From IMG/VR virus record IMGVR_UViG_3300020477_001447, positions 36,744 through 100,743 of that record: a DNA stretch of 64,000 bases; one strand, written 5' to 3'. A model generated the notes under the pieces. It was given only the letters and a program-made list of their open reading frames with translations, was not told the origin of the DNA and ran no database searches. The translations under genes were made by a program, and so were the position numbers. Position 1 is the first letter of the stretch, and every line of letters begins with the position of its first letter. This stretch comes from a virus. Shown here piece by piece: positions 10,232-26,762 of this stretch.

Positions 10232-10868
10232 CAATCTTTCTATTATTATTCGAAATAGAAATGAAGAAAACTGGATAGGTTATGCGATCCAGTCTTGTTT
10301 GGACACGTTTAATGATCCGGAGATCATAATTGTTGATAACAACTCAATTGATCAATCTATGGAAATCGTTAATGAATTCTGTTTTTCAAACATCAAAATA
10401 ATGCAAATTGATAATTATTCTCCGGGGCGGTCACTTAACATGGCAGTTCGCGCTGCATCGAATGATACAATCTTAGTTTTATCTGCACATAGCGTTATTA
10501 CAAGGCCCATTAATTTAGATCGAGTTAAATCGAACTTAAGACAGCATGCCGCTGTATTTGGAAAGCAGACGCCCGTATATAGGGGCCGTAAGATTACAAA
10601 ACGGTATGTGTGGTCCCACTTCACAGATGAATCTGTAGTCAACATGTGGTCTGATGCAGAGGAAAGACACTTTTTACACAATGCTTTTTGTTTTTATGAT
10701 AAAAGCGTTCTATTAGAGAATAAATTTGATGAGAGACTTTCTGGTAAAGAAGACCGCTATTGGGCTAACAAGGTTGTTTCTCGTGGTTTCACGTATTTGT
10801 ATGATGTTGAATTGCAGTGTGACCACCACTGGACCCCAGCCGGAAACACATGGAAGGGCTTAGGCTAG
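10224..10868 (+). CDS. Glycosyltransferase family 2
   Basis: The 214-residue protein begins with the GT2 fold (LSIIIRNRNEENWIGYAI) and has IIIVDNNSIDQS at about residues 34-45, the nucleotide-binding aspartate region. I chose ATG 10224 because the domain starts immediately after it and AGG boxes lie four and eight bases upstream. ATG 10203 and GTG 10194 are in-frame alternatives that would lengthen the overlap with the NeuB-like gene. The sequence LSGKEDRYWANKVVSRGF near residue 175 resembles the acceptor-side ED motif of this family. Acceptor and donor are unknown. Confidence 0.8.
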   Translation: MADNLSIIIRNRNEENWIGYAIQSCLDTFNDPEIIIVDNNSIDQSMEIVNEFCFSNIKIMQIDNYSPGRSLNMAVRAASNDTILVLSAHSVITRPINLDRVKSNLRQHAAVFGKQTPVYRGRKITKRYVWSHFTDESVVNMWSDAEERHFLHNAFCFYDKSVLLENKFDERLSGKEDRYWANKVVSRGFTYLYDVELQCDHHWTPAGNTWKGLG

Positions 10869-11431
10869 TGAGAATAGTCGCTTTTATTCCAGCTAAAGGC
10901 AACTCGCGTAGGCTAAAGGGTAAAAACATATACCCTTTGAAGGAAAAACCTCTTATATGTTGGACTTTGGACGCAATAAAACAGTCAAAGTATCTAAATG
11001 AGACTTATATTTCAACAAATAGTGAGGAAATTGCTAATATTTCTTTACTTTATGGGTTTAATGTTATTCATCGACCGGATAGCCTAGCCTTAGAAAGTGT
11101 TGGAAAACAACAGGTTTTAGAACATGCATTGTCGGAAATAGAGAAGTCTGGAAAAGTAGACTATATTTGCATGTTACAGGCCAACTCTCCACAGATTGAA
11201 GCTTGTAAAATAGACGAAGCTATTGAAAAAGTAGCACATTCAAACGGAGAAGTTTGGGAATGCTTGTCAATTAACAAGGAAACTTTGTTCACTGATGGCG
11301 CTATAAGAGTTTTTAATACAGATTGTGTATCCCGCCTAGGGTTGGGAATGTACATAAGTGCAGTTCTTACAGATTATATTGATGTACACACAATCGAAGA
11401 TATTAACACCCTAGAAAAGATGGATTTCTAA
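10850..11431 (+). CDS. Second NeuA-like cytidylyltransferase
   Basis: This 193-residue protein is a second member of the acylneuraminate cytidylyltransferase fold. It has FIPAKGNSRRLKGKNIYPL near the N-terminus, TYISTNSEEIANIS, and YICMLQANSP where NeuA has its substrate strand. It ends in DVHTIEDINTLEKM, matching the usual metal-binding tail. It is shorter and clearly divergent from the first copy at 7825, so it may activate another sugar acid. ATG 10850 overlaps the upstream gene by 19 bases. GTG 10868, overlapping the upstream stop as TAGTG behind a GGAAGGG box, is an equally good start. Confidence 0.75.
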   Translation: MEGLRLVRIVAFIPAKGNSRRLKGKNIYPLKEKPLICWTLDAIKQSKYLNETYISTNSEEIANISLLYGFNVIHRPDSLALESVGKQQVLEHALSEIEKSGKVDYICMLQANSPQIEACKIDEAIEKVAHSNGEVWECLSINKETLFTDGAIRVFNTDCVSRLGLGMYISAVLTDYIDVHTIEDINTLEKMDF

Positions 11432-11434
11432 AGA

Positions 11435-12094
11435 ATGTATAAAGTAACAGTTGGCATATGTTGCTATCGACAAGATGATTGGGTGTATCGATGCCTTCGA
11501 AGTTTAGCATCCCAGACCTTGAGCAAAGACCATTTTGAGGTTGTTCTAGTCGATGACAACGAAGTGCCGAGTCAAAAATTACAAGATGTTTGTACAGCAA
11601 TGGGTGATGTACTTAATGTAAGGCTTATACAGAACAAGAAAAATATGGGCTTACCCACATCATTAAATAATATTTTAAAGACTGCTCGTGGCAAGTATTT
11701 TGTTAGAGTTGATTCAGATGACTATGTTTCTAGACACTTTCTATACATGCTATCAACCATGTTGGAAATGAACAGGAGCTATCAAGCGGTTTGCTGTGAT
11801 TATATGAAAGTAGATCATGTTGGCCAGAAGCTAGGGTATTATGATTCTTTTTCAGAACCAATTGCTTGTGGCGTTATGTTTAGTTATGAAGCTTTGTGTT
11901 CGTTAAATTTTTACAATGAAGAATACAAAATGCGCGAGGGCCATGAGCTATTGGAGAGGTTCCAAAAAAAATATTCTATGTATCACTTAAAAGCTCCGCT
12001 ATATCGGTATAGAATACATGAAGAAAACAGAACAAACAACGTTGATAAAGTAGCTTATTACGATTCAAAACTTAAGGGAGAACAAGATGGCTAG
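11435..12094 (+). CDS. Glycosyltransferase family 2
   Basis: The 219-residue protein shows a standard GT2 GT-A core: VGICCYRQDDWVYRCL at the start, VVLVDDNE (residues 36-43), NMGLPTSLNNIL, and RVDSDDYV (91-98) containing the DxD motif. Near the end, MREGHELLERF is compatible with the family's ED-type acceptor motif. It starts three bases after the second cytidylyltransferase gene and overlaps the epimerase gene by eight bases, so it belongs to the same operon. It is the last recognisable glycosyltransferase of the cassette. The sugar it transfers is unknown. Confidence 0.85.
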   Translation: MYKVTVGICCYRQDDWVYRCLRSLASQTLSKDHFEVVLVDDNEVPSQKLQDVCTAMGDVLNVRLIQNKKNMGLPTSLNNILKTARGKYFVRVDSDDYVSRHFLYMLSTMLEMNRSYQAVCCDYMKVDHVGQKLGYYDSFSEPIACGVMFSYEALCSLNFYNEEYKMREGHELLERFQKKYSMYHLKAPLYRYRIHEENRTNNVDKVAYYDSKLKGEQDG

Positions 12095-12962
12095 ATGTTT
12101 AGTGACCGGACACCGCGGTTATATTGGTACAAAATTGGTACAAGAGTTAGAGCGCCAAGGACACGAAGTCTTAGGTATTGATCTACAGGATGGTAAAGAT
12201 GTAATAGATGAGCTGCAAGAACACACGGATGGAAAGTTTCACCCACATTACACTAATTTTAAACCAGAGTATTTGTTTCATTTAGCTTGTATCCCTAGGG
12301 TTGCATATAGTGTAGAGCAGCCAGTGGAGACGATGCAAAACAACGTGATGGCAACAAGTGTTGCTTTAAACTTCGCGCGCAAGAATGGAGTAAAGAGGTT
12401 TATTTATTCTAGTTCATCTTCTGTTCGGGGCAACGGGAACGGCCCAGTCAGCCCATATGCATTACAGAAATACACATCAGAGCTAGAAGTGGGAATGTAT
12501 AGTGCTCTTTATGGCACGATGGACACTGTGTCTCTTCGATATTTTAATGTTTATTCTCACGATCAGGAAGCATCTGGCCCATATGCAACTGCAGTTGCGG
12601 CATACATGAAAGCTGTCCGTGATGGTACCACTCCTCATATTACTGGAGACGGAGAGCAGCGGAGAGATATGTCTCATGTCTTAGATGTTGTTTCTGCGAA
12701 CATATTTGCTATGAATTTCGATATGAATTTTTGTGGCCAATTTTTTGATGTAGGCACCGGAGACAATATCTCCTTGAATCAAATAAAAAATATTGTACAA
12801 AAGCATCATCCTCATGTAAAATTTGATTATGTCGAAGAACGCGCTGGAGATGTTCGCTTAACGAAGGCTGATATGACACCACTAGAAGAGCTAGGGTGGA
12901 CGCCCGACTGGAACATCTATGACGGTATTGAGGACTGTTTTGAGAGAACAAAAGTAGGATAA
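12087..12962 (+). CDS. NAD-dependent epimerase/dehydratase (extended SDR)
   Basis: The 291-residue protein is an extended short-chain dehydrogenase/reductase acting on nucleotide sugars. The NAD-binding motif GHRGYIG is at residues 8-14. The catalytic serine region SSSSS is near 108-112, and the YxxxK pair is Y124/K128 in PYALQK. RYFNVYSHDQ and QRRDMSHVLDV are typical for GalE-, RmlB- and WbpP-like enzymes. Such enzymes epimerise or dehydrate UDP- or dTDP-sugars. A strong AAGGGAG box precedes the ATG. Its neighbour is a UDP-glucose-dehydrogenase-like gene, so the two may act in sequence on one nucleotide sugar, for example via a uronic acid; that pairing is inference. Confidence 0.88.
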   Translation: MARCLVTGHRGYIGTKLVQELERQGHEVLGIDLQDGKDVIDELQEHTDGKFHPHYTNFKPEYLFHLACIPRVAYSVEQPVETMQNNVMATSVALNFARKNGVKRFIYSSSSSVRGNGNGPVSPYALQKYTSELEVGMYSALYGTMDTVSLRYFNVYSHDQEASGPYATAVAAYMKAVRDGTTPHITGDGEQRRDMSHVLDVVSANIFAMNFDMNFCGQFFDVGTGDNISLNQIKNIVQKHHPHVKFDYVEERAGDVRLTKADMTPLEELGWTPDWNIYDGIEDCFERTKVG

Positions 12963-12963
12963 G

Positions 12964-13827
12964 ATGAAAGAAGAAATTGGTATAATAGGAAACGGATTTG
13001 TTGGCTCCGCAATTGCTGCCGGCTTTAGTTTGCATGCAGATGTGAAAGTTTACGATGTAGATCCAACGAGGTCAACGCACAATATGCGAGACACTATCAA
13101 TGAATCCAATGTCATCTTTGTTTCTGTTCCAACGCCTATGACGACTGCCTTGGGTGGCGAGATTGATACATCAATCATGGATGGCGTTTTCGAACAAATC
13201 TCTTTGTTAAATAAGCGAAAAGACAATATTTTTGTTGTAAAATCTACAGTTATTCCGGGTACTGTTGAACGATATATTGATAAGTATCCCGAGTTGAATA
13301 TTGTGTTCAGCCCAGAGTTTTTAACAGAACGCGCCGCCCGATTTGATTTTATTAACTCATCCAGGGTTATTTTAGGTGGAACAAAAGAACTAACTGAACG
13401 AGTTGAGATGGCAATGAGGACTCGGTTCCCATATGTTAGAATTATCCACACAGATGTTACAACCGCGCAGTTTATCAAATATATGGCGAACTGCTTTTTT
13501 GCTACAAAGGTATCCTTTATGAATGAAATGAGGCAAGGTGCTGACAAATTAAATGTTAATTGGCAAGATGCCATGCTTGGTTTTATTACAGATGGAAGAA
13601 TTGGAAACTCCCACATAGATGTCCCAGGCCATGACGGGAGTCTTGGCTTCGGAGGGAAATGCTTTCCAAAAGACTTGAATGCATTTATTGAAATGTTTCA
13701 CGAAAATGAAGTGGAGCCAACAGTTATGAAAGCTGTTTGGAACAAGAATTTAGAAGTTAGAGATGATTTGGACTGGACTAAGATTGAAGGTGCGGTCACT
13801 AAAAAAAAGAAAAGGAATTCAAAATGA
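12964..13827 (+). CDS. UDP-glucose/GDP-mannose dehydrogenase-like, C-terminally short
   Basis: The 287-residue protein has the nucleotide-sugar 6-dehydrogenase layout. The NAD motif GIIGNGFVGSA is at residues 6-16, SVPTP at 54-58 and KSTVIPGT at 93-100. The central-domain lysine is in FIKYMANCFFATKVSFMNE (K172), and the catalytic cysteine is C233 in GFGGKCFPKD. These enzymes oxidise the C6 alcohol of UDP-sugars to the uronic acid using two NAD. Typical members exceed 380 residues and end in a third, UDP-binding domain. Here only about 40 residues follow the catalytic cysteine loop, so that domain is missing. The tail is lysine-rich (TKKKKRNSK). Activity on UDP-sugars is therefore uncertain. 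Confidence 0.82.
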   Translation: MKEEIGIIGNGFVGSAIAAGFSLHADVKVYDVDPTRSTHNMRDTINESNVIFVSVPTPMTTALGGEIDTSIMDGVFEQISLLNKRKDNIFVVKSTVIPGTVERYIDKYPELNIVFSPEFLTERAARFDFINSSRVILGGTKELTERVEMAMRTRFPYVRIIHTDVTTAQFIKYMANCFFATKVSFMNEMRQGADKLNVNWQDAMLGFITDGRIGNSHIDVPGHDGSLGFGGKCFPKDLNAFIEMFHENEVEPTVMKAVWNKNLEVRDDLDWTKIEGAVTKKKKRNSK

Positions 13828-14294: not shown

Positions 14295-14623
14295 CAATTG
14301 CTCTAATATTGCTGAGTATATCAGTGTTACTAAATGTTGTTCTTGTTTGGTACTTGCTCAAGGTGCTAGCTAAACTACTATACACATCTGACAATCTTGG
14401 TGATCTATACATAGTGGCGGCTTCTTATTCTAAATTTGTTGAGGAACTCTATGGCATGGATATGTTTTATGGGGAACCGACAATACAAGAATTAGTTTTA
14501 AGATCTAAGGAGTTAGTTGCCGAAATACAAAACTTTGAATCTATTTATGAGCTTACAACAGATCTTGAAGATGGAATGGAACTAGATGACGAAAATAGTG
14601 AAGAAAAGACGGAAGAGGACTAA
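14291..14623 (+). CDS. Membrane-anchored acidic small protein
   Basis: The 110-residue protein has one N-terminal hydrophobic segment (about residues 3-27, IALILLSISVLLNVVLVWYL) with no obvious signal-peptide cleavage site. A cytoplasm- or periplasm-facing helical region follows, and the tail is strongly acidic (ELDDENSEEKTEED). I do not recognise a family. It overlaps the zinc-ribbon gene by four bases and the sigma factor gene by 38 bases, indicating tight translational coupling with late transcription control. Function unknown. Confidence 0.7.
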   Translation: MTIALILLSISVLLNVVLVWYLLKVLAKLLYTSDNLGDLYIVAASYSKFVEELYGMDMFYGEPTIQELVLRSKELVAEIQNFESIYELTTDLEDGMELDDENSEEKTEED

Positions 14624-15287
14624 GAATTTATATTTCACCAAAGAGCACGAACTGGCTATAATTGAATATACAAACACGAATTCTCGGGAGAAAAGAACAG
14701 AGTTATATATAAATTGGATCCAGCCGGCGTTCGATCAAATGGTGGATAAAATCATATATACTTATCGTTTTAGTAATTTACCAAACATTGATTATCTTAA
14801 GCAAGATTGCAAAGTTTGGCTAACAACAATATTAGACAAGTACGATCCCTCTAAGGGTTCGAAAGCTTTCTCTTATTTTTCTGTTGTTACTAAAAACTGG
14901 TTTATTCACAAGGTCAAGAAGAATGCTAGCAGAAGCAGGAAAGAAGTTTTCTTAGACGACCTGACAAACGATGCTATTATAGAGCAAATAACAGATGACT
15001 ATTCTTACATTAAGGAAAGACAGTCTAGAGAATTCTGGCTTCATTTTTACCATGAGATGAATTCTTGGACTAACGCAAACTTAAAACCCAATGAGAGAAA
15101 GGTCTTAGAAGCAATCAGAATTTTATTTGAAAGCTCTGAAGATATAGAGATTTTCAATAAAAAAGCTATTTACTTATACTTAAGAGAACTTACCGGCCTA
15201 AACACAAAGCAGGTTGTAAACATCTTAAATAAGTTAAGAATTAAATATAGGAATTTTAGAAACAAATGGGACTCAGGGGAAGTTTAG
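14586..15287 (+). CDS. gp55: T4 gp55-like late sigma factor
   Basis: The 233-residue protein resembles the phage late sigma factor gp55, a minimal sigma-70 relative that directs host RNA polymerase to late promoters. The region around residues 72-115, with YLKQDCKVWLTTILDKYDPS, then GSKAFSYFSVVTKNW and FIHKVKK, fits sigma region 2 (core binding and -10 recognition). Its basic N-terminus is MTKIVKKRRKRTK. A C-terminal helical part (ELTGLNTKQVVNILNKLR) looks like a small helix-turn-helix. No obvious sliding-clamp-binding end of the T4 type is visible (the tail is NKWDSGEV). The candidate targets are the CTAWWTA sites listed separately. The gene overlaps both neighbours. Confidence 0.78.
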   Translation: MTKIVKKRRKRTKNLYFTKEHELAIIEYTNTNSREKRTELYINWIQPAFDQMVDKIIYTYRFSNLPNIDYLKQDCKVWLTTILDKYDPSKGSKAFSYFSVVTKNWFIHKVKKNASRSRKEVFLDDLTNDAIIEQITDDYSYIKERQSREFWLHFYHEMNSWTNANLKPNERKVLEAIRILFESSEDIEIFNKKAIYLYLRELTGLNTKQVVNILNKLRIKYRNFRNKWDSGEV

Positions 15288-15571
15288 AAGATTATCTAGA
15301 AGAGGTTACAAGAAATGTTAGAGACGACAGAGCTTTAGCAAAAACTCTTTTAATTGATGCAATGCATGAGATGAAAAACTCTGATGCTGCCAAGAAGGAG
15401 TATGGACCCCTTGCTGCTAAATATATTGAAAATCTTCAACGATCAAACGAACAGTTAGTAAAATTATCGACAATTGTGCAAAGAGTCAGCAACACTAATG
15501 CTGGTTTATCTGCAGAAGATAAGTCTGATATATATGACATGATTAAGGATAAGAAAGATGAGCGCGATTGA
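15266..15571 (+). CDS. Small helical protein, unknown function
   Basis: The 101-residue protein is almost wholly predicted helix (ALAKTLLIDAMHEMKNS and ENLQRSNEQLVKLSTIV) with a charged end. It overlaps the sigma factor gene by 22 bases and the hub protein gene by 14 bases. In T4 the second late-transcription factor gp33 has a similar size. I see no clamp-binding tail or other gp33 signature, so I leave it unassigned. A weak AGGA lies about 12 bases before the ATG; the overlap with the upstream gene suggests coupled translation. Confidence 0.7.
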   Translation: MGLRGSLEDYLEEVTRNVRDDRALAKTLLIDAMHEMKNSDAAKKEYGPLAAKYIENLQRSNEQLVKLSTIVQRVSNTNAGLSAEDKSDIYDMIKDKKDERD

Positions 15572-16793
15572 GGATTTCATCGCGCGATGGCCAAAAACAC
15601 TAAATTATAATTCAGCATCTACACCTCTAGACACTAGAAGATCAAAGAGTTTAAAAGCATTAAGTGATGCGATAGAAGATCGGCATACTTTAAATACTAG
15701 AGAGGCCGTCGTAGAACACGAAGCACTGGTTTTAAAAGTAAAGCCATATTCTCCCCCTCCTGGCACAGCCCTAGATCCAGATATGGGCTTTTTTTCAACA
15801 ACCCCTCCAAACGTTGAGCTAAAATGTGTACTTCTAACAGATCCAGAATCTCAGGTCAGATCGACCCTCCCAAAAAACATCCCAGCGCCCCCGGGCACTA
15901 TGGACGATCTTATAATTGAAACATCTTTTCCTTCTTTTGTGGGAAGAGTTTTTCACGATCACCCCGTTGAGGTGGGTGACATTGTTATAGTACATAAGAC
16001 AGAAGCTACCGATGCCGAAGGGGTGTATATTAAAAAACTAGGCGTAAAGTGGCTTCCGACCGGAGGAGGGGCGTTTACAAGTCCAGAAGAAGTTCATAGA
16101 AATTTAACCTCTGGGCCTATAACTATGGGCAGCTATACTGGTGGGTTGAGCAGCTATAGCGGCGGAAAAAATACAGCACTAATTTTTGGAGACAGCCAAA
16201 TACAGGGCGCAATAGGCCGAAATTTTGAGAAGCTATTGCCGAAAAATGGCTGGACTTTAGTTGGTGGAAATCGACTAGGAAAGGTTGGCGCCAAACCTTC
16301 ATTTTGGGTAAAAGACGGAAATCAGAGCGCAGATTTAAAACAAAGATTACAGGCCCAGCCCGGGCTTATCGTAATTAACTTGGGCGGGAATGGCATCGCA
16401 GGTACAAAAAGCTTGTTAGATTTAATTAATGAAACAACCCCGGCCTCCAAGGTTATATGGCTAGGTCCACCCCCCGCGGTTAAACCAACTAGTGCCCCAT
16501 CTGATGTACAGTTGGTATATGCCACCCCAGCACCCCCCGGAACTGCAACTAGTGCCTCAAGATACAAAAGATATTATGTTAATTATAGAGAATACAGGGA
16601 AGGGTTAGCAAATAGGCTATTTGATACGGTAGCCAGCCACCCCGGCGCAAATCCAGTTATTACGATTAACGCAACTGCAGCGTTTGATTCGCTGGGGATG
16701 ACCTCTTCTCCAGATGGTGTACACGTTGTTGATCCATATGCTAGGCAATATGTGGAAAAATTGATTGAAATGCACAACATGAAGGTTGTTTAA
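15558..16793 (+). CDS. Tail hub protein: gp5-type N-domain fused to SGNH hydrolase
   Basis: The 411-residue protein has two parts. Residues 1 to about 175 are shared with the next gene (TRRSKSLKALSDAIE, PGTALDPDMGFFS, PSFVGRVF, VGDIVIV, WLPTGGG), probably an OB-type baseplate hub or spike adaptor like the N-domain of T4 gp5. Residues 205-400 form an SGNH/GDSL hydrolase. Block I is FGDSQ with nucleophile S213, block III is GGNG with N278, and block V is SPDGVH with D386 and H389. Such domains remove acyl groups, often acetyl, from polysaccharides. At the tail tip it may deacetylate surface glycan or peptidoglycan during entry. The substrate is inferred. Confidence 0.82.
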   Translation: MSAIEDFIARWPKTLNYNSASTPLDTRRSKSLKALSDAIEDRHTLNTREAVVEHEALVLKVKPYSPPPGTALDPDMGFFSTTPPNVELKCVLLTDPESQVRSTLPKNIPAPPGTMDDLIIETSFPSFVGRVFHDHPVEVGDIVIVHKTEATDAEGVYIKKLGVKWLPTGGGAFTSPEEVHRNLTSGPITMGSYTGGLSSYSGGKNTALIFGDSQIQGAIGRNFEKLLPKNGWTLVGGNRLGKVGAKPSFWVKDGNQSADLKQRLQAQPGLIVINLGGNGIAGTKSLLDLINETTPASKVIWLGPPPAVKPTSAPSDVQLVYATPAPPGTATSASRYKRYYVNYREYREGLANRLFDTVASHPGANPVITINATAAFDSLGMTSSPDGVHVVDPYARQYVEKLIEMHNMKVV

Positions 16794-16807
16794 AATTTAA
16801 AATGTTT

Positions 16808-16814
16808 CTAATTA
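16808..16814 (+). promoter_or_regulatory. Candidate late promoter element CTAWWTA (CTAATTA)
   Basis: In the 36-base gap before the lysozyme-type hub gene, CTAATTA begins 22 bases before the ATG at 16830 and is followed by TTTAC and a GAGG ribosome site. The same 11-mer CTAATTATTTA recurs at 63227. The heptamer resembles the T4 late promoter TATAAATA. Promoter activity is inferred. Confidence 0.4.
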
Positions 16815-16829
16815 TTTACGAGGTATACA

Positions 16830-18131
16830 ATGGCTGAACAAACACCTATAGAACTTTTTATTGCAAAATATAGAAAAAATATGTCGACAGCTATCGATCA
16901 ACCCGTTATCGATACTCGACGGCCTAGGACTCTTAAAAAAGCAAAGGACTTAATAGAATCTCAATCCACACTAGACATAACGGCAGGAATTCACGAGCAC
17001 GATGCTTGGGTGATGAGAGTGGATCCCTGGTCCCCGGACCCCGGAACAGCCCTAGACCCAAATATGGGTTTCTTTTCAATGCCAGGTACAAACTATACAG
17101 TTTATTGCGTAATCCTCTGTTGTCCATTGACAATTGGCCTACCCTTGCCGGGTACTGACCAACTGGGAGCACCAAGCAACACTTTAGGTGGTTTTCTGAT
17201 AGAGCAATTTCCAAGCTTTGATGGCCGAGTGTTTGATGGATCAGAAGGGCTTCCAGAGGTGGGTGACATTGTTAAAGTAACATACAATGGTGTAAACAAA
17301 ACAAGAGGTGTGTGTACCGGTCGCACTGGCCTTCGTTGGCTACCAATTGTGGGCGGAAGCTACACTCCAGCATTGTCTTCTTTTGGTTCTATGGCATTTC
17401 AGCCTGGAATGATGGGAAATGTAAGCTGTAATGAATCTGCCGGCACTGGAACAACTAATGTACCTAGGTTTTCCTATAGTGAGTTGAAAACAATGAGAGC
17501 ACCACTTCAACCTCTTTTAGAATATATCGCAGCCCATGAATCTAGAGGAAATTACAATGCAGTAAACAGAGGCGTTGGGGGAGACACTCCCGGTGGAGCA
17601 AAAGCTGTTGTTGGCAAAAACCTAACAGAAATGACAATTCAAGAGGTCTTGGACTTTATGAAAGGTGGCTCTAGAGCAGCCGAAACAGGACCCGGAGGGC
17701 AAGGTTCCGTTGGGTTCTTGGCTACAGGAAAGTATCAATTAATCCCTGTCACTCTTAACGCTGCAATCAATAGCACTGGTATATCTAAAAGCACACTGTA
17801 CAATGTAGAAACCCAAGAAACTCTAGGAGTTTATCTGCTATTAAAGAAGAGAAGAAAGCTTGGAAGCTATTTAATAGGTGCTAATAACGATTCCTGTGAG
17901 GCAGCCCAGGCAGCTGCTCTAGAGTGGGCATCTCTTCCTCTCCAGTATGGCAGATCAAATGGTTGCCAACGTGGGTACAGCGCATATTGCGTTGGGGGAG
18001 CAAACGCAACAGGAAGACTGAGTAGATCTCCAGAAGAGGTTATACAAAAATTACAATCTGCTCGCAGTGCTGTGACAACTAACCCTGTAGCATTGCAACT
18101 TATAACAAGTAAAGGCTCTGTGGTGGTTTAA
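16830..18131 (+). CDS. Tail hub lysozyme: gp5-type N-domain fused to muramidase-like domain
   Basis: The 433-residue protein repeats the N-terminal domain of the preceding gene (TRRPRTLKKAKDLIE, PGTALDPNMGFFS, PSFDGRVF, VGDIVKV, WLPIVGG). Its C-terminal half is a lysozyme-like domain. LEYIAAHESRGNYNAVNRG contains the likely catalytic E237, GFLATGKYQLIPVTL follows, and a helical end includes QETLGVYLLLKKRRK. The pattern resembles phage tail-associated and T4 gp5-type muramidases, which cut peptidoglycan so that the tube can cross the periplasm. A GAGG box and a CTAATTA element precede it, so it probably starts a late transcript. Whether it hydrolyses or transglycosylates cannot be told. Confidence 0.82.
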   Translation: MAEQTPIELFIAKYRKNMSTAIDQPVIDTRRPRTLKKAKDLIESQSTLDITAGIHEHDAWVMRVDPWSPDPGTALDPNMGFFSMPGTNYTVYCVILCCPLTIGLPLPGTDQLGAPSNTLGGFLIEQFPSFDGRVFDGSEGLPEVGDIVKVTYNGVNKTRGVCTGRTGLRWLPIVGGSYTPALSSFGSMAFQPGMMGNVSCNESAGTGTTNVPRFSYSELKTMRAPLQPLLEYIAAHESRGNYNAVNRGVGGDTPGGAKAVVGKNLTEMTIQEVLDFMKGGSRAAETGPGGQGSVGFLATGKYQLIPVTLNAAINSTGISKSTLYNVETQETLGVYLLLKKRRKLGSYLIGANNDSCEAAQAAALEWASLPLQYGRSNGCQRGYSAYCVGGANATGRLSRSPEEVIQKLQSARSAVTTNPVALQLITSKGSVVV

Positions 18132-18132
18132 A

Positions 18133-19113
18133 ATGGGCGAAGAAAACAAATATACAATACCAAAATCTGTTCGCAAGGCCGTCGATCAAGCCGGCCTTCC
18201 TAAGCCTGAAAGAGATTTGCTGGAAAATCTAGATAATATGGTTTTAAAGCATATGCATTCTGGAATAGGTGGTGGCAGGCAAACAGAAGCTATACCTGAA
18301 TTTAATTCCTCTCCCTCTGAGCATATAATTTCTGCAAGGGATCTAGGTAGAAATGCCTCTATTGTTCTTGGATATGATAGGGAATCAACAAAAACAACAG
18401 GTTATGGTGGAAGAGGTCACACACATGCCGCCGCCATCGATATAGTTGTCGGTCGAATGGGCCCGTATGCAGTAGAAGCAGATAACAATGGTAACAAGGT
18501 GAAAGCCAATATTGGATTTAAAGTCGATTCTGCGCGCATATATATAAGTCAAAAAACTGATATTGATGAATATTTTGGAATCAACGAAGGTAAGGTCGGA
18601 AGTCCAAAAGGTAGATCTGCTATAGCTCTCAAAGCTGACAGTGTTCGTTTAGTCGCTCGAAAAGGAGTGAAAATAGTCACAGGGGTTGATACAAGAGAGT
18701 CAGCTGGTTTTAGGCAGCTAGCCACAGACGGCATTGATTTGATGGCTGGAAACCCAGAGGATGAAACCGCTTTGCAGCCTCTAGTTAAAGGCGATAACTT
18801 ACGACAAGCTCTTTCGGATCTTTCAGAGCAGATCGCCAAACTAAGAGGAGTTCTTTACGGATTTTTAAAATCACAAAGGGATTTTAATACAGACATACTT
18901 AACCACCAACACAATTCTCCATTTATGGGAATACCAACATCTCAGCCTTTTGTTTTAGCAGCTAAAGGTATCAGAACAATAATAGAACAGGTTGCAACGT
19001 CAGAAAAAGATATTAATGCACATGCTGCCACGCTTACAGCATGGGAACAAAATTATTTAAATCCACTAAAAACAGATACTTATATTAATAGCAACTACAA
19101 TAGGACAAACTAA
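18133..19113 (+). CDS. Baseplate spike-like protein with three HxH motifs
   Basis: The 326-residue protein follows the lysozyme hub gene after one base. Its centre has short alternating strands (RSAIALKADSVRLVARKGVK, then IVTGVDTRES) of the kind seen in beta-helical tail spikes. The C-terminal third is helical (NLRQALSDLSEQIAKLRGVL). Three His-x-His pairs occur: H40/H42 in KHMHSG, H96/H98 in RGHTHAA and H258/H260 in NHQHNSPF. Paired histidines bind iron at the tips of some phage spikes, so metal binding is possible. Placement among hub genes supports a central spike or hub role. I do not recognise a named family. Confidence 0.6.
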   Translation: MGEENKYTIPKSVRKAVDQAGLPKPERDLLENLDNMVLKHMHSGIGGGRQTEAIPEFNSSPSEHIISARDLGRNASIVLGYDRESTKTTGYGGRGHTHAAAIDIVVGRMGPYAVEADNNGNKVKANIGFKVDSARIYISQKTDIDEYFGINEGKVGSPKGRSAIALKADSVRLVARKGVKIVTGVDTRESAGFRQLATDGIDLMAGNPEDETALQPLVKGDNLRQALSDLSEQIAKLRGVLYGFLKSQRDFNTDILNHQHNSPFMGIPTSQPFVLAAKGIRTIIEQVATSEKDINAHAATLTAWEQNYLNPLKTDTYINSNYNRTN

Positions 19114-19119
19114 TTTAAA

Positions 19120-22100
19120 ATGGCATCTCCTCCAATTACAACCCCTCCACCCACAACTAATGGTACCATGCCAGAAGTTAGATGGAGTCTTAAAAGCGTT
19201 AATCAGCCATACGAGGAAGCTGGTTTATACAAGGTTATTGTTCGCTCAACATCGAGAGACAAAGAGGGCACCCTTGAAGATTTTGTTACAATGTCCACTT
19301 TAGAGAGGGCGATTGATTTAGTTTATAATTTTTATGGCAAGATAGATATACCCGGAACCGATAGTTCCGGTGGTTCTGGGCATGCATCTAAAACTTTAAA
19401 AGAGAAAATTACACCAGAAAGTGCTATGGCCGGCTCAAACGTTGTAGCTATGACAGTGGTGGATCATTTTATTGATGATCGGCCAAACTCTGCTATAAAG
19501 CTTTTAATAACTTTTAGCAAGATGGCTATAGATCGAAAAGCCGATTATACTTTTGATCCATCTCAGATAGTCCATCAAAAACACTTTGAGTTTCAATCTT
19601 TAGAGAGACAGGTTAAGAAACTAAAAAAACTATTTATGGATTACCATAATGTTGCAAAATTTTTTGATGGAAGAATAAGCCCGTATATTAATTTTAAAAA
19701 AGAATATGAAAGGTTAGCGTCTTGGTATGACTCTCTTGTTGAGTTTGTCGAGTTTAACAACATAAGAAAAACATCAGATGAGAATGACACAATCATACTC
19801 AGCTTAGATGAAAATTATGGTCTATTACAAGTAGAGGTAATCCAGCAAGGGATAGCAAGCACCCTGCTTAGAGGGTACGATCATTATAAATCAAAAACTG
19901 CTCTAGGGAATGCAAGAACAAACGCACTTTCTTTGAATATTACAGAAATATCTAAAGTTCGTAAAGATCCTATAACTTGGAGTGAGTTTATAAAAAGGTA
20001 TTTTATCGCTGGATCATCAACAGAACAAATAAAGATTACTCACACGGGTCGCTCAAGAACACCGTCAGTGAGTGATGAAATGGCTGCGGAAGCTAATGAC
20101 AAAAATAAACTTTTTCAAACAGAGGCCGACGCGGAAGAAGAAAGGCGACAGATTAGGCTCAACACACAAAGGTCGCAGCGAATGTACAATGAAGCTGCAT
20201 CAGAAGCCGAAACAAGCCTTGAACAAGATCTAAGAAAAATTGCAAAAGAAATTAAGAAAATAAACAGTGCTGAAAAGCTAGTCCGTGACTTTATCATGAG
20301 GTACGGTATTGACAATCTTATTTCCGCTGGCTTAGAGTGTCTTGCTAGCCGCGCAGGAATAGATCCAGATAGTATTCCACCAATTCCGGGTATTGATCCA
20401 TATTCACTACCAACCCCCCCAACAGAGATTAAATTTCCAAAATTTCCAATGGAAATTCCAACATTTGATCCGGCTGCAGAAATACAAAAAGGAATAAAGG
20501 AGGGCATGAAAAAGGCCCTGGAGGAAGCTATCAAGGCAATGGTTAATGCAGTTGCAGACATGATTAGTGATATGTGTGCTGATAAGGATTATGGACAAGC
20601 AGAGCCATTATCATTGGCAATAACTGGTAATTTAACTCCAATAGAGGAAGACAAGGGCCCCGGCGCTTTAGATTCCTGTTTTGAAGATCACGGCATGACA
20701 AGAAACGAAGGAATCATGTTTGTTGATTCAGTATCTGATGTGCTGTCTCCAACGGAAGTTTGTGACTTGTTAAATGGCTCTCCCTCCACTAGTGTGATGG
20801 AAGCTATACTTGATATTGTTGGCCAGCAAAACTTAGAACTTAATTTTATGACAGAAGAGTCTGTTCTTGATTTCTTTGGCTGTCTCGGTGACTTAATAGA
20901 TCCGAGCTATTGCGATGCAATTTATAATCCTCCGATACTCCCAGCAGAGGTGGATCCTTGTTTGTTTGAAGATTCCCTCATTGATGCTCTCGGAGACGAA
21001 CAGGCATTTAATGATCTAAATGATCTATTAGATTTAATAAATAACGATGAACCAGTAACCGACCCAATGTCAATCTGTGAATCCGGTATAATTCCAGCAC
21101 TCAGTGGTATGCCTGCTATGGCTCACTCGATGGGCAAAGCTCTAGACGGAGTTTTGGGCCCCGCTCAGACTTCATTTATAAATGACGTTAGTGGGTTAAA
21201 GAGCCTGTATTTGAGGGTTGATAGAAGTCAACCTAATTTTGAATTGATTGAGCAGCTCGTTGCCGCTGGAGCCCTTAATACACCATCGGAAGAGGAGGAA
21301 GCAGCCCGAGAAGAAAAGATGAACTCTTTAAACAATTTCTTTGCGTTAGATGCTTTTGCTGGAAATGAAGACTTAGCCAACATTGCTTCTTTGGTGGAAC
21401 GTGGAAATAATGCAGTCATGGCTGGCGCAAAATTTGTGGTGCAAGCTCCAATACGAAGAACATTGCTAAACTTTGTAGAGGAAATTCAAACGCCTTGGAA
21501 TCCTGAGATTCCAAATTCATTTAATTGGGCCTTCTCTATCGGTACCGATTCTGATGATATTCATTTTGGTTCTCCAAACCTGATAGCAATACAGGACACT
21601 CAAAGCGGCGATACGATGTCTCATCCCGAAGGCATAGAGATTCCAGAGTTATACAACGCTAGCTACACAACCGCCAGAAATTTAACCGCTATGGAATTCG
21701 GTCAAAAGATTCGGGATTCATTATCTTCCCTTGGTGGCTCTTCCAGCGCAGCAGTGATGAATGATTTGGCAAATGTTGAATATTTCAATACAGTTTTATA
21801 CATGGCAGAGAGCGCAGCAGAAGGTATTCTTAATTCAGACCTGTTCGATTCAGAGGAGTTTAGAAAGTTTTCACTTGTTCCTGTGCCATGTCAAGACGGC
21901 ACAGAATTAAACGCTGCAGATCTTCTAGATATAGAGAATATTAAGCAGACAGCCTTAAACGACTTTTTTCAAGGCGCTTGTATTGAAGGGGATTATGAAA
22001 TTGGCCCCCTTGAAGATGCGATGATGTTCGCAGTGACAAATGTTTACATTCAGGTTTATGTTGTGGAGCAGTTGTTAAAGAACATATTCTTGTTTAACAC

Positions 22101-24507
22101 ATATGGAACAGCCGAAGTGCTGTCAGATCCGGTGTTATTAAAGAAGATGGTCGAAGATATAAAAAACAGCTTCTCTATCGAAGCAGAAAGAATATCACCA
22201 GAAGACCCGTCCTCAGTTGAGCCCTCTCTTCATACAACGATTGAAGAACTAAGCAAGATATATGTTAGAAAATTACTAGCTGCTCCACCAGAAAATAGTT
22301 TACCAGATTTAATTAACGAAGGGCAGTTTATTTTAATGGAACCATCCGAGGTCACAGCAGCCTTCGCGCTGGAATACATTGTTCAGAAAAGATTAAAGGA
22401 TGCTTCAGAGACAATAGGTGCTATCCTAACTGGTGGCTCTACCGCATCTTTTCATGGTCAATATTTAGCCAATGGTTTACCAACATCTGAGTTGTGGACC
22501 CCTAGAGACGGCACTTTAGAACTACAACAATCTTCAGGTGGCAATGGATACACTTACAAATACCTTCTTGATGTACCAATTGGGGCTGCTGACGAAGATT
22601 ACAGCCCTGAACTTCCAGCAGTGCCATCTTCTGGTTTGGGAATTGAAAGATACGTGTTGATGCACTTAAATGAAACACTTGTCTCTACACTGTCTGGGTT
22701 AGAACAATATATCATTAATAATATTATAATACCTGAACTTGGCCCTCACTTCCAACAACAGGCTGATCGCCGTCGTTATATTCTGTCTTTTGATGAATTT
22801 AGCACGTTTTTAACTCGCAGTGCTCAGTTCGCAGATGTTTCTGAAATATTAGATGAACTGCCGCCGGTAACCTTAGCCGCGGCTAATGGCTCTGGTGTTT
22901 CTAGAAAAGATATTAAGATTGACGAGAACAATTATGAAGCATTAAGGTTTATGTCAAATCTTATATCACACGAGATGGATGGCTCTACAGCGTTAATCGG
23001 ACCATTGAGAGATGCTACACAAACAGGCGATCAATACCCAGATCCCCTGACAGATCATGCAGAAAAATTATTCATACCAGAGAGTTTTTGGACAACCACA
23101 TATGGTCAACCGCGCGCAGACTGGACTGCCCCTCATTATATATACAACGATGATTTTGATGAAATGTCCGTTGGCTTCCCAGATAGTTGGGGAGAATATA
23201 ATCCATCTCTCGGCGCCGATCCTGCCACACCGAATGTACCAAGGAGGATTTACTTAACTCCTCCAAATAATGGAAACTGGGTCTCTAACGGCGTTGTTCA
23301 GTATAATCAGTTTAAATATTATTCCCCACAAGGACACGCAGAACAGGTGGACCCAAACGAAACCCAGCCTGCTGGCATTTTAAATTTCTGGTCTGCTGTA
23401 GAAAACTTCCCAGTCTTTTTAAGGGAAATTCCACTATCGGTCCTTCGCGATCTTAACAATCAGCCATCTATCGCGCCCAGTGGAGATTATCAGTTCTCTC
23501 AGACAGCGCCACCATTCTCAACTGTGTTCGAAAATATTCGTTTAGGCGCCAGATTAATTTATTATACGCCATACAAACAGTTCTCTGAATTAGAACCCCG
23601 CGGTTACTTTGAAACATATGGTCAAGATTTGACTCAGCAAGAACAGAAGTGGTTAGAGTATAGAACAGGTCCACCAATAAGGGGTGGCAATAACAAATAC
23701 ATTTTCCCAGTAGATATAGGGGCGTATGGTGCTATTCAGATTGCTGAAAACAGACAGGAGTTACTTGGCTCTTCATCAAATTACATATATGCCAAGTTTA
23801 GATCATCAAAGTCAGAACTGTATGAATCTTTAGCCTCGTCTGCTGGCTATCGAGATTTGTTTGTTAATGACTTGTATGGGTCTCCGATACTACCGGCAAG
23901 AGAAATAATTGCATTCTTTGCGTTACTAAGTCAAGCTGTGTCCGACAATAAATCTGCCGACATCAATAAAATGTTTGATGATACTAAGTTAAATTTAAGA
24001 TTTGTAATGCGCGCCTTATTAGCCGGCAATGATTATGCGTTTGAAGATCCGGAAGACCGATCTTCTGCGCAAGCAGCTCGCGATGCAGTTTTAGGCATTG
24101 TAGGCGCCGGCGCAGCTCCGTTTGCGCAAATGGGCGCGTCTTTTGTACTTAAAATGTTGATAGAAACTCCAAAAATGATTGTTAAAGGGTTGGCTGAAAT
24201 ATTAGACCCTCACGTTGTAATAGGTACACAGATAAGAAATATAACAGGTCCAATATTACAATCAATACCATCCTCTTTGCCGTTTGATGAACTGCTGCAG
24301 CTGCTGCAAGAGGAGATAGAGACGAAAGCAGACCAAGATGGAATTCCAGGGCCGCTAGTACCTCAAATTAAAAAGACGGGTATAGACATGGTTGGCAAAT
24401 TACCATTACTGTTTTTGCCGCCACCAACACCGCTTGGGATACTTTATATCTTGTTAAATATGAATTTAGAAGACCTAATTGAATTGCCAGATTGTGATTC
24501 GGAGTAA
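19120..24507 (+). CDS. Giant baseplate-module protein, 1795 residues, unknown function
   Basis: The protein lies directly between the spike-like gene and the gp25-like gene, so it is almost surely a tail or baseplate component. Residues 1-320 look globular. About 327-400 is a charged helical region (EADAEEERRQIRLNTQRSQR). A proline-rich stretch follows (IPPIPGIDPYSLPTPPTEI), then an amphipathic helix (IKEGMKKALEEAIKAMVNAV). The C-terminus has several hydrophobic runs, including FVLKMLIETPKMIVKGLAEI and LPLLFLPPPTPLGILYILL, which could pack in the baseplate or contact membrane. No catalytic motif or named family is recognised. It lacks the long heptad organisation expected of a tape measure protein. 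Confidence 0.7.
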   Translation: MASPPITTPPPTTNGTMPEVRWSLKSVNQPYEEAGLYKVIVRSTSRDKEGTLEDFVTMSTLERAIDLVYNFYGKIDIPGTDSSGGSGHASKTLKEKITPESAMAGSNVVAMTVVDHFIDDRPNSAIKLLITFSKMAIDRKADYTFDPSQIVHQKHFEFQSLERQVKKLKKLFMDYHNVAKFFDGRISPYINFKKEYERLASWYDSLVEFVEFNNIRKTSDENDTIILSLDENYGLLQVEVIQQGIASTLLRGYDHYKSKTALGNARTNALSLNITEISKVRKDPITWSEFIKRYFIAGSSTEQIKITHTGRSRTPSVSDEMAAEANDKNKLFQTEADAEEERRQIRLNTQRSQRMYNEAASEAETSLEQDLRKIAKEIKKINSAEKLVRDFIMRYGIDNLISAGLECLASRAGIDPDSIPPIPGIDPYSLPTPPTEIKFPKFPMEIPTFDPAAEIQKGIKEGMKKALEEAIKAMVNAVADMISDMCADKDYGQAEPLSLAITGNLTPIEEDKGPGALDSCFEDHGMTRNEGIMFVDSVSDVLSPTEVCDLLNGSPSTSVMEAILDIVGQQNLELNFMTEESVLDFFGCLGDLIDPSYCDAIYNPPILPAEVDPCLFEDSLIDALGDEQAFNDLNDLLDLINNDEPVTDPMSICESGIIPALSGMPAMAHSMGKALDGVLGPAQTSFINDVSGLKSLYLRVDRSQPNFELIEQLVAAGALNTPSEEEEAAREEKMNSLNNFFALDAFAGNEDLANIASLVERGNNAVMAGAKFVVQAPIRRTLLNFVEEIQTPWNPEIPNSFNWAFSIGTDSDDIHFGSPNLIAIQDTQSGDTMSHPEGIEIPELYNASYTTARNLTAMEFGQKIRDSLSSLGGSSSAAVMNDLANVEYFNTVLYMAESAAEGILNSDLFDSEEFRKFSLVPVPCQDGTELNAADLLDIENIKQTALNDFFQGACIEGDYEIGPLEDAMMFAVTNVYIQVYVVEQLLKNIFLFNTYGTAEVLSDPVLLKKMVEDIKNSFSIEAERISPEDPSSVEPSLHTTIEELSKIYVRKLLAAPPENSLPDLINEGQFILMEPSEVTAAFALEYIVQKRLKDASETIGAILTGGSTASFHGQYLANGLPTSELWTPRDGTLELQQSSGGNGYTYKYLLDVPIGAADEDYSPELPAVPSSGLGIERYVLMHLNETLVSTLSGLEQYIINNIIIPELGPHFQQQADRRRYILSFDEFSTFLTRSAQFADVSEILDELPPVTLAAANGSGVSRKDIKIDENNYEALRFMSNLISHEMDGSTALIGPLRDATQTGDQYPDPLTDHAEKLFIPESFWTTTYGQPRADWTAPHYIYNDDFDEMSVGFPDSWGEYNPSLGADPATPNVPRRIYLTPPNNGNWVSNGVVQYNQFKYYSPQGHAEQVDPNETQPAGILNFWSAVENFPVFLREIPLSVLRDLNNQPSIAPSGDYQFSQTAPPFSTVFENIRLGARLIYYTPYKQFSELEPRGYFETYGQDLTQQEQKWLEYRTGPPIRGGNNKYIFPVDIGAYGAIQIAENRQELLGSSSNYIYAKFRSSKSELYESLASSAGYRDLFVNDLYGSPILPAREIIAFFALLSQAVSDNKSADINKMFDDTKLNLRFVMRALLAGNDYAFEDPEDRSSAQAARDAVLGIVGAGAAPFAQMGASFVLKMLIETPKMIVKGLAEILDPHVVIGTQIRNITGPILQSIPSSLPFDELLQLLQEEIETKADQDGIPGPLVPQIKKTGIDMVGKLPLLFLPPPTPLGILYILLNMNLEDLIELPDCDSE

Positions 24508-24555: not shown

Positions 24556-24951
24556 ATGAAAGGTTTATCACCAAAATTTCCACTTGTTTTGAACACGGCT
24601 GAAATTACATATCAGCTTAATGTCTCGTACAAGGAGATGATCGCACAAAATTTAAAGAATTTATTGTTAACAAGTCCAGGCGAACGAGTCATGGAGCCAA
24701 ACTTCGGTGTTGGTTTAAGAAATTACTTTTTCGAACCTCTGTTACCAGAAACTCTCATCCAGATAAGAGAAAATGTATACTCTCAGGTAGGAACGTACAT
24801 GCCGTTTGTTGAGATAATAGATGTTGAGTTTTTTGAATCAGATGATGTTGGAGCGAACCCTAATATGCTTTCTGTAAAAATTATGTATGCAATAACTCCT
24901 TTACAAGAGGTGGACACGCTTAGCATAAATAATGATTTTTTAACTTCTTAA
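24556..24951 (+). CDS. gp25: Baseplate wedge protein, T4 gp25/GPW family
   Basis: The 131-residue protein is a clear gp25/GPW-family member. ITYQLNVSYKEMIAQNLKNL is followed by the hallmark SPGERVMEPNFGVGLRNYFF (residues 40-59), where the family motif reads roughly GER-EP-FG-GL. Gp25 sits in the inner baseplate wedge, next to gp6 and gp53, and helps initiate sheath polymerisation in contractile tails. The length matches T4 gp25 (about 132). The gene is followed after 14 bases by the gp6-like gene, the same order as in T4. It is preceded by a CTAAATA element and an AGG box. Confidence 0.92.
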   Translation: MKGLSPKFPLVLNTAEITYQLNVSYKEMIAQNLKNLLLTSPGERVMEPNFGVGLRNYFFEPLLPETLIQIRENVYSQVGTYMPFVEIIDVEFFESDDVGANPNMLSVKIMYAITPLQEVDTLSINNDFLTS

Positions 24952-24965
24952 CGGGAAACTAACTT

Positions 24966-26762
24966 ATGGCTAAAAAAATTAAATCAATTGATTATACAAG
25001 CAGAGACTTTGAGTCTATTAGGCAAGACTTAATCAATTATACAAAAAAATACTATCCTGACTCTTTTAAGGACTTTAATGAGGCTGGGTTTGGAGCATTG
25101 ATGCTCGATAGTGTTGCTTATGTTGGCGATATGCTTTCTTTCTACTTGGATTATCAAGCAAATGAAAGCTTTCTAGAAACATCGATGGAATATGCGAACA
25201 TTGTCAAACACGGAAGACAGATGGGGTACAAATACCCAGGAGTACCTTCTTCTTCTGGGTTAGTTTCTTTGTATATTACAGTACCGGCCAACGCAGACGG
25301 CACCGGCCCAGACATGTCATATGTCCCAACTCTTCTTAAAGGAACCCAGTTTACGTCTTTAAATGGTAGCATTTATACATTAATGGAAGATGTTTATTTT
25401 GGAAATGCGACCAACGAAGTGGTTGTATCAACTGTGGACTCCTCCACTGGCGTACCGACAAATTTTGCTATTAAAACATCAGGCTTAGCCATTTCTGGTC
25501 GTTTAATATCGCAAGAAGAGACAGTGGGTGATTTTCAAAAATTCTTGCGCATAGGATTGAACAACCCAAATGCTACTGAAATTGTTTCATGTGTTGACTC
25601 CGAAGGTCATGAATATTTTGAAGTGGATCATCTTTCTCAAAATGTTATTTACAAAGCAATACGAAACAACAATCAACATAGAAAATCCACACCATCAATC
25701 CTCAAAGCAGTCCCTGTACCTAGAAGGTTTGTTTTAGAGAGATCCCCAGGTGTAGCATTCCTTCAGTTTGGCTACGGTAGTGATAATGAATTAGTAAATT
25801 CCAGTGTTGTTGATCCAGCAAACATTGTAATGAACATTCATGGTCGCGACTATTCTGTAGATGAAGCTTTTGACCCAACAAAACTTACTGCTACTGATAA
25901 GTTTGGAATAGTTCCATCGAACACAACGCTTAATATAGTTTTTAGAGCTAACGCATCAACAGATGTTAATGCTAGTGTTGGCACAATTAACGGAGTTTCT
26001 TTGCCGCTATTTAAATTTACAAACCAGGGCGCCCTAAATGCAGGTTTAAGAACTACAGTTCGTGGTTCTTTGGAGGTTTTGAATGAGGAACCTTTTGTTG
26101 GGGACGTTGCTGTGCCTAGTGGTACAGAACTTAAACAAAGAATGTATAGTTTTTATGCAACTCAGAATCGCGCAGTCACTGCTGAAGACTACAAGAGCAT
26201 GGTTTATGCAATGCCCGGACGTTTCGGGGCTGTAAAGAAATGCTCTGTTTCTCGGGATTTTGATTCTTTTAAGAGAAACTTAAACTTGTATGTTGTCTCT
26301 GTTGATTCGAATAATAAATTAAGTCTAGCCAACACAACAATAAAAAATAATATTAAAACTTGGCTAAATCGGTATAAAATGATAAATGACACTGTTGACA
26401 TATTAGATGCTAAGATTGTTAATTTTGGTATCAAGTTTATTGTTGTCGCAGACTATGAAGAAAACAAGTATGATGTTTTGAATCGGGCAACTGCAGCTTT
26501 GAAAGAACACTTTTTAACAAATAGCTTTGATATTGGAGAGCCTATTTATATTACAGACATTTATAAGGCCCTACAAAAAGTGAAAGGTGTCGTAGATGTG
26601 GTTGACGTTATAGTTGTGCAGAAGCGTGGTGGTGTATATTCAAACACAACCTATGACTTCGAAGCAGCAATATCCAACGACGGAAGAAAGATTTTAGCAG
26701 AAGAGGATCTTGTGTTTGAATTGAAATATAGAAATACAGACATTGTAGGAAGCGTTTCATAA
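24966..26762 (+). CDS. gp6: Baseplate wedge protein, T4 gp6/Baseplate_J-like
   Basis: The 598-residue protein begins IDYTSRDFESIRQDLINYTK, the typical N-terminus of phage gp6-like wedge proteins. It continues with DFNEAGFGALMLDSVAYVGD and MLSFYLDYQANESFLETS. The C-terminal half includes AVTAEDYKSMVYAMPGRFG and a repeated alpha/beta ending characteristic of the Baseplate_J family. Gp6 forms the inner ring that joins the wedges around the hub. The length is near T4 gp6 (660). Its place after gp25 and its TAATG junction with the next structural gene agree with a T4-like wedge operon. Confidence 0.9.
   Translation: MAKKIKSIDYTSRDFESIRQDLINYTKKYYPDSFKDFNEAGFGALMLDSVAYVGDMLSFYLDYQANESFLETSMEYANIVKHGRQMGYKYPGVPSSSGLVSLYITVPANADGTGPDMSYVPTLLKGTQFTSLNGSIYTLMEDVYFGNATNEVVVSTVDSSTGVPTNFAIKTSGLAISGRLISQEETVGDFQKFLRIGLNNPNATEIVSCVDSEGHEYFEVDHLSQNVIYKAIRNNNQHRKSTPSILKAVPVPRRFVLERSPGVAFLQFGYGSDNELVNSSVVDPANIVMNIHGRDYSVDEAFDPTKLTATDKFGIVPSNTTLNIVFRANASTDVNASVGTINGVSLPLFKFTNQGALNAGLRTTVRGSLEVLNEEPFVGDVAVPSGTELKQRMYSFYATQNRAVTAEDYKSMVYAMPGRFGAVKKCSVSRDFDSFKRNLNLYVVSVDSNNKLSLANTTIKNNIKTWLNRYKMINDTVDILDAKIVNFGIKFIVVADYEENKYDVLNRATAALKEHFLTNSFDIGEPIYITDIYKALQKVKGVVDVVDVIVVQKRGGVYSNTTYDFEAAISNDGRKILAEEDLVFELKYRNTDIVGSVS

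What the first reader, a model, noticed from the sequence alone, without database searches (positions are those of the whole stretch)
15558..18131. Paired hub proteins: same adaptor domain, esterase versus lysozyme
Two adjacent genes encode the same N-terminal hub domain (both have PGTALDPxMGFFS and WLP) fused to different enzymes: an SGNH hydrolase with S213, N278, D386 and H389, and a muramidase-like domain with E237. T4 has only the lysozyme version. The phage might load mixed trimers or two kinds of hub, first deacylating surface glycan or peptidoglycan and then cutting it.
Basis: partly seen in the sequence, partly recalled or inferred. Interest (0 to 1): 0.75.

Follow-up and report, generated by a model that had tools for sequence, protein, structure and literature searches.

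The report
Paired enzymes on phage tail tip
A marine tailed virus has two neighbouring genes that appear to fit the same attachment domain with different cell-wall enzymes, an esterase and a lysozyme; related viruses carry one to three such genes with swapped enzymes, which suggests an exchangeable tool kit for getting through the bacterial wall.

Summary
Genes 15558-16793 and 16830-18131 share an N-terminal domain (38% identity over 206 aa, E 5e-37), followed by an SGNH-esterase or a lysozyme-like domain.

Beyond the finding: the slot between a late-sigma/101-aa gene pair and a separate spike gene is modular across marine relatives. In 160 distinct loci it holds one, two or three adaptor genes, never four. 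Enzymes include lysozymes, M23, M15, amidase_2, DUF2272, GH19, SGNH and PTP-like phosphatase. SGNH never occurs as the only cargo: 12 of 14 SGNH loci carry a recognised lysozyme-type partner (36 of 142 others; p = 1e-5), from four families, in tandem or fused. Its profile's best PDB match is PatB, a peptidoglycan O-acetyl enzyme. Two three-hub phages match adaptors by gene position although all three enzymes differ.

Best reading: tail-tip adaptors loading an acetyl-esterase that uncaps MurNAc together with the muramidase that O-acetyl groups would block. A heterotrimeric hub is plausible but unproven. Peptidoglycan is a likelier target than surface glycan. T4's OB domain is not detectably homologous in sequence. 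No activity, virion location or stoichiometry was tested.

The parts
15558..16793 (+). hub adaptor + SGNH hydrolase gene (411 aa)
   Evidence: ORF; paralogy; SGNH family profile A10 with PDB PatB match; AF2 model
15558..16088 (+). N-terminal adaptor domain of the SGNH protein (aa 1-177), OB-like: strands 53-64, 85-92, 126-130, 141-147, 154-164
   Evidence: AF2 pLDDT about 68-94 over the core; Foldseek also hits ribosomal uS12-type OB proteins
16167..16790 (+). SGNH esterase domain; S213, N278, D386, H389
   Evidence: alignment of 11 homologues; Foldseek hits SGNH esterases including Ape1 and OatA
16830..18131 (+). hub adaptor + lysozyme/transglycosylase-like gene (433 aa)
   Evidence: ORF; PHROG endolysin matches; AF2
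16830..17369 (+). N-terminal adaptor domain of the lysozyme protein (aa 1-180), OB-like
17442..18128 (+). lysozyme-like domain, invariant E237
   Evidence: alignment of 10 homologues; BFVD hits to phage lysins and gp5/Vgr OB-fold hub proteins
18133..19113 (+). separate tail-spike gene (326 aa), homologous to the C-terminal part of fused hub-spike proteins
   Evidence: hhalign 99% probability, E 3.5e-18 against the immuto / Mel-JY01-type proteins
14586..15287 (+). late-sigma-like gene that marks the upstream edge of the slot
   Evidence: PHROG late sigma factor E 2e-4; syntenic anchor
15266..15571 (+). conserved 101-aa gene between the sigma gene and the hub slot
24556..26762 (+). baseplate wedge genes gp25 and gp6 downstream (context)
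   Evidence: Pfam GPW_gp25 E 2e-14 and PHROG wedge families

Best explanation
These are two tail-tip (baseplate hub) adaptor proteins of a T4-like marine phage. They arose by duplication of one adaptor gene, and each carries a different peptidoglycan enzyme. Proposed action: as the spike (18133-19113) punctures the envelope, both enzymes reach the periplasm together; the SGNH domain removes the 6-O-acetyl group from MurNAc that blocks lysozymes, and the lysozyme-like domain then cuts the glycan. Shown here: paralogy, enzyme families, conserved pairing, modular slot, SGNH-lysozyme association. Inferred: location in the virion, substrate, order of action, and assembly into one mixed ring.
For: Shared adaptor. 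Pair conserved at 58%/65%. The slot lies between the sigma/101-aa genes and the spike, upstream of gp25-gp6, in the related loci that reach across it. In 160 loci it carries mostly peptidoglycan hydrolases where it can be classified. SGNH loci: 12 of 14 have a recognised lysozyme-type domain against 36 of 142 others, p = 1.3e-5; 8 of 9 lineages, p = 2e-4; among multi-enzyme loci 10 of 10 against 3 of 10, p = 0.0015. Partners come from four families (LYS type, PF11860, PF18013-like, lambda-lysozyme type), in tandem or fused: L117 and L135 are muramidase + SGNH in one polypeptide, L247 SGNH + lambda-type lysozyme. The SGNH profile's best PDB match is PatB (E 9e-11); Ape1 also matches. Precedent: Neisseria Ape1 and the lytic transglycosylase LtgA form a complex and stimulate each other (PMC7083599); O-acetyl at MurNAc C6 blocks lysozymes (PMC6174289).
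Against: No biochemical or virion data. Many SGNH enzymes match at lower scores, and the fold search finds sialate O-acetylesterases too. PatB is a transferase in its host, so family does not fix the reaction. The host, and whether its wall is O-acetylated, are unknown. L216 and L228 have SGNH plus an unassigned C-terminal domain rather than a recognised lysozyme. NeuB-like genes are mildly enriched near SGNH loci.
Confidence: 0.58

Rival explanations
1. The SGNH domain deacetylates an outer surface glycan (O-antigen, capsule or nonulosonic acid), as tailspike deacetylases do, and its link with the muramidase only reflects two layers being breached in turn.
For: A nonulosonic-acid-type gene cluster lies upstream (7825-13827); NeuB-like genes near 6 of 14 SGNH loci against 21 of 146 (p 0.015); Foldseek hits include sialate O-acetylesterases.
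Against: The profile is closest to PatB/DUF459. The enzyme sits in a hub slot otherwise filled mostly with peptidoglycan hydrolases, not in a tailspike. SGNH is fused directly to muramidases. Close NeuB homologues among SGNH loci occur only in the window and L004.
Confidence: 0.22
2. The two proteins form separate homotrimeric hubs, so that each virion carries one type or the other, or they occupy two stacked rings, rather than a mixed trimer. (This rivals only the assembly step, not the enzyme reading.)
For: T6SS offers a precedent: VgrG1 and VgrG2 of Serratia were concluded not to form heterotrimers (PMC4924876). Most phages in the family have a single adaptor and so must make a homomer.
Against: The three-hub phages L114 and L118 keep three position-specific adaptors while every enzyme differs (100/98, 100/97, 98/90). 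No locus has more than three. Both are harder to explain if the hubs are interchangeable homotrimers.
Confidence: 0.4
3. The adaptors are not baseplate hub proteins: they are lysis or other cell-wall enzymes that happen to lie in the baseplate operon.
For: No detectable sequence homology to the T4 gp5 OB domain; no virion proteomics.
Against: Shared N-domain in 99 of 112 hub-slot proteins, OB-like in both window models; immediate synteny with the spike and with gp25-gp6; BFVD fold hits to gp5/Vgr OB-domain and baseplate hub-lysozyme proteins.
Confidence: 0.12

Closest known systems
Phage T4 gp5 (tail lysozyme: OB domain + lysozyme + beta-helix spike)
   Same: OB-like N-domain followed by a lysozyme-type enzyme, encoded upstream of gp6; proposed to act at the tail tip
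   Different: Here the spike is a separate gene, there are two paralogous adaptors with different enzymes, and the adaptor does not match Gp5_OB (PF06714)
Anabaena myophage A-1(L) baseplate hub with dual hydrolytic activities (PMC10966104)
   Same: Two hydrolases at one trimeric hub with a separate central spike; an A-1(L) baseplate entry is the top PDB fold hit of the lysozyme protein, though weak (8KEA, E 0.011)
   Different: A-1(L) has both enzymes (endoglucanase/lysozyme and peptidase) in one polypeptide; here they are on paralogous adaptors and include an esterase
Type VI secretion VgrG proteins with variable C-terminal effector domains
   Same: gp27-gp5-like spike platform, several paralogues, swappable C-terminal enzymes
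   Different: VgrG fuses gp27-like, OB and beta-helix parts; Serratia VgrG1/2 were concluded not to heterotrimerise
PatB / Ape1 peptidoglycan O-acetyl enzymes (SGNH family)
   Same: SGNH blocks conserved; PatB is the best profile match in the PDB
   Different: Phage-encoded and fused to a putative tail adaptor; activity untested; a PatA-like acetyl donor was not looked for
Flavobacterium phage immuto and Microcystis phage Mel-JY01 (nearest cultured relatives found)
   Same: Same order sigma / small gene / hub-spike / gp25 / gp6
   Different: N-domain and spike are fused in one protein without an enzyme; Mel-JY01 has a separate gene annotated as chitinase

Membership tests
SGNH hydrolase superfamily | Block I Ser, block II Gly, block III Asn, block V Asp-x-x-His | tested here: met
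   S213, a block II Gly, N278, D386 and H389 conserved in 11 homologues
SGNH hydrolase superfamily | Passes the curated Pfam GDSL cut-off | tested here: inconclusive
   Window protein 15.2 bits against 32.9; homologues pass: L117 34.8 against 32.9, L135 36.8 against 23.6 (PF00657), L160 DUF459 29.0 against 27.2
PatB/Ape-type peptidoglycan O-acetyl enzymes | Closest sequence relatives among solved structures | tested here: met
   PatB 8TLB E 9e-11 is the top hit; Ape1 4K3U E 2e-5
PatB/Ape-type peptidoglycan O-acetyl enzymes | Acts on 6-O-acetyl-MurNAc | not testable with these tools
   Needs a biochemical assay
T4 gp5 family | Sequence match to Gp5_OB (PF06714) | tested here: not met
   No match in 32 adaptors while T4 gp5 scores 221.7 bits; hhalign to the T4 OB domain 0.1%
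T4 gp5 family | OB-fold N-domain | tested here: met
   Predicted strand order and Foldseek hits to OB proteins in two models; moderate confidence, and OB is a common fold
T4 gp5 family | beta-helix spike in the same polypeptide | tested here: not met
   The spike is a separate gene here
T4 gp5 family | Trimeric hub in the virion | not testable with these tools
   No complex prediction or virion data
Phage lysozyme / SLT transglycosylase | Catalytic Glu conserved | tested here: met
   E237 invariant in 10 homologues
Phage lysozyme / SLT transglycosylase | Significant family match | tested here: met
   phrog_90 endolysin E 9e-14; Pfam SLT below cut-off, 16.3 against 21.3

The most novel reading that the evidence does not exclude
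The hub ring of these phages is a heterotrimer of up to three non-interchangeable adaptor isoforms, each loading a different cell-wall enzyme: the tail tip is a three-socket tool holder in which sockets are inherited by position and enzymes are swapped freely.
Probability: 0.35. Interest if true: 0.88.

Novelty: new variant of a known kind. Interest (0 to 1): 0.74.

Why it matters
Tail-tip peptidoglycan hydrolases are well known, but tandem paralogous adaptors with different enzymes, and an O-acetyl-esterase paired with a muramidase in a phage tail, were not found in the papers searched. If right, it shows a phage counter to lysozyme-blocking wall acetylation built into the virion, and gives a natural, directly testable system of one to three swappable enzyme sockets for studying how asymmetric trimers form in contractile machines. 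It also gives a likely role to a family of marine phage proteins whose N-domain no Pfam or PHROG model was found to cover.

Tried and rejected
Phage collection search with the SGNH protein: no match. First scans with the two proteins or the N-domain alone found only two phage types; gp6 and the sigma gene were then used as syntenic anchors. PDB sequence search with two-row alignments: nothing; the 11-row SGNH profile succeeded. Profile link of the adaptor to the immuto-type fused N-domain: not significant (probability 6%). Giant single hubs as covalent multi-adaptors: rejected, no protein has more than one adaptor domain. Sialic-acid linkage tested by NeuB co-occurrence: weak. Genome-contig scan for a host: only two MAG contigs (Flavobacteriales, Actinomycetes), not usable as host evidence. 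Glycosidase calls among SGNH-negative loci include a loose motif match, which makes the association test conservative, but about 47 loci stayed unclassified by HMM. The cap-at-three probability (0.001-0.004) uses a naive model and ignores relatedness, so it is only suggestive.

Full report
1. Observation. Their first ~205 residues are 38% identical, E 5e-37. The rest differ: the first has a weak GDSL-like match, the second a weak SLT match and clear phage endolysin matches (phrog_37890 E 3e-27, phrog_90 E 9e-14).

2. The pair is real and old. A divergent phage (L004, IMG/VR) has the same two genes in the same order with 58% and 65% identity. In the careful tree the SGNH adaptors of both phages group together (99/92), as do the lysozyme adaptors (99/89), and the four form one clade (100/96). 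The duplication therefore preceded the split of the two phages and both copies were kept.

3. Surroundings. The order is late-sigma-like gene, a 101-aa gene, the two hub genes, a 326-aa gene, a 1795-aa gene, gp25, gp6. The 326-aa protein is homologous (hhalign 99%, E 3.5e-18) to the C-terminal part of single hub-spike proteins of immuto and Mel-JY01-type phages, the nearest cultured relatives found (terminase 42-44% identical; wedge gp6 about 30-33%). The spike that is fused to its N-domain there is a separate gene here.

4. The slot is modular. Scans with gp6 and with the sigma gene gave 160 distinct loci with a readable slot. Of the first 112 hub-slot proteins 99 carry the adaptor by an iterated HMM, and 98 connect by BLAST. 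C-terminal domains include M23, M15/VanY, amidase_2, DUF2272, PF11860 muramidase, PF00959 lysozyme, PF18013-like lysozyme, GH19, glucosaminidase-like, SGNH and DSP/PTP-like phosphatase. About 47 loci have C-domains that no class HMM recognised. The slot holds one adaptor gene in 111 loci, two in 8, three in 9, none above three; in 32 loci no adaptor was detected, being divergent or cut.

5. SGNH never stands alone. Fourteen loci carry SGNH (one, L108 hub 3, assigned from motifs GAS-F, GGANG, DGLHP). Twelve have a recognised lysozyme-type domain in the same slot: LYS type (window, L004, L110, L114, L115, L160, L108), PF11860 (L117, L135, L161), PF18013-like (L120) and lambda-lysozyme type (L247, PDB 1AM7 E 3e-4). 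In L216 and L228 the SGNH protein has an unassigned ~280-aa C-terminal domain. Against 36 of 142 SGNH-negative loci this gives p = 1.3e-5; reducing sister loci to nine lineages gives 8 of 9, p = 2e-4. In L117 and L135 muramidase and SGNH are in one polypeptide, so there they must act in the same place. The five phosphatase-type hubs likewise always sit beside a lysozyme-like hub (two of the partners assigned by eye).

6. What the SGNH domain is. The 11-row profile's best solved relatives are PatB, the Gram-negative peptidoglycan O-acetyltransferase (8TLB E 9e-11), and a DUF459 protein; Ape1 (4K3U, E 2e-5) also matches. Fold search of the moderate-quality window model (pLDDT 73) hits SGNH esterases in general, including OatA, Ape1 and sialate O-acetylesterases, so fold alone does not pick the substrate. 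O-acetylation of MurNAc C6 blocks lysozymes, and Ape removes it (PMC6174289). In Neisseria Ape1 and the transglycosylase LtgA form a complex and stimulate each other (PMC7083599). Together with point 5 this makes an uncapping esterase the best reading.

7. Adaptors. Both window models have the same five-strand-plus-helix N-domain; OB-fold proteins appear among the hits of both. BFVD hits of the lysozyme protein include gp5/Vgr OB-domain and baseplate hub-lysozyme proteins. Sequence homology to T4 gp5 OB was tested and not found. So it may work like the OB-lysozyme part of gp5 but cannot be filed as a Gp5_OB member by sequence.

8. One ring or several? Adaptors within a phage are usually far more alike (32-78%) than adaptors carrying the same enzyme in unrelated phages (about 25-30%). 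Enzymes therefore move between adaptor lineages. In L114 and L118 the three adaptors match by position (100/98, 98/90, 100/97) although the enzymes are SGNH/amidase, lysozyme/DUF2272 and phosphatase/M15. L172 and L185 show the same with weaker support. Non-interchangeable, position-specific adaptors and a ceiling of three genes fit a heterotrimer, the hub of T4 being a trimer (established knowledge). This is inference: gene conversion could mimic within-phage similarity, and no stoichiometry was tested.

9. Novelty. The papers read hold a phage hub with two hydrolases in one polypeptide (A-1(L), PMC10966104) and T6SS VgrG variation.

Noticed in passing
L114:10785-12107, L172:7973-9442, L185:7973-9274, L243:4863-6602, L264:8952-10448: Hub adaptors carrying a DSP/tyrosine-phosphatase-like domain, always beside a lysozyme-like hub; possible removal of a phosphate or polymer linkage from the wall.
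   Followed up: partly
window 7825-13827: Nonulosonic-acid-type cluster (NeuB-like synthase, two CMP-sugar cytidylyltransferase-like genes, glycosyltransferases, epimerase, UDP-glucose dehydrogenase-like) upstream of the tail genes, conserved in L004; assigned by eye.
   Followed up: partly
window 19120-24507: 1795-aa gene between spike and gp25 with no family match; its position holds very different giant proteins (1685-2927 aa) in relatives.
   Followed up: no
window 28408-38358: 3316-aa structural gene with no assigned function here.
   Followed up: no
L126:7986-11855, L145:7989-11267, L171:7989-11933, L216:8939-11461, L228:8938-11403: Giant single hub proteins (821-1314 aa) with extra unassigned domains that look like glycoside-hydrolase barrels by eye.
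   Followed up: partly
BFVD A0A1B1IUR3, A0A1B1IUR4, A0A1B1IUT8: Fold hits with neighbouring accession numbers and similar size; possibly another tandem hub set in one virus.
   Followed up: no
L120:5552-6295: Middle gene of a three-hub array is an adaptor almost without cargo (247 aa), as are the short single hubs of L133, L184 and L038: enzyme-free hub subunits may exist.
   Followed up: no
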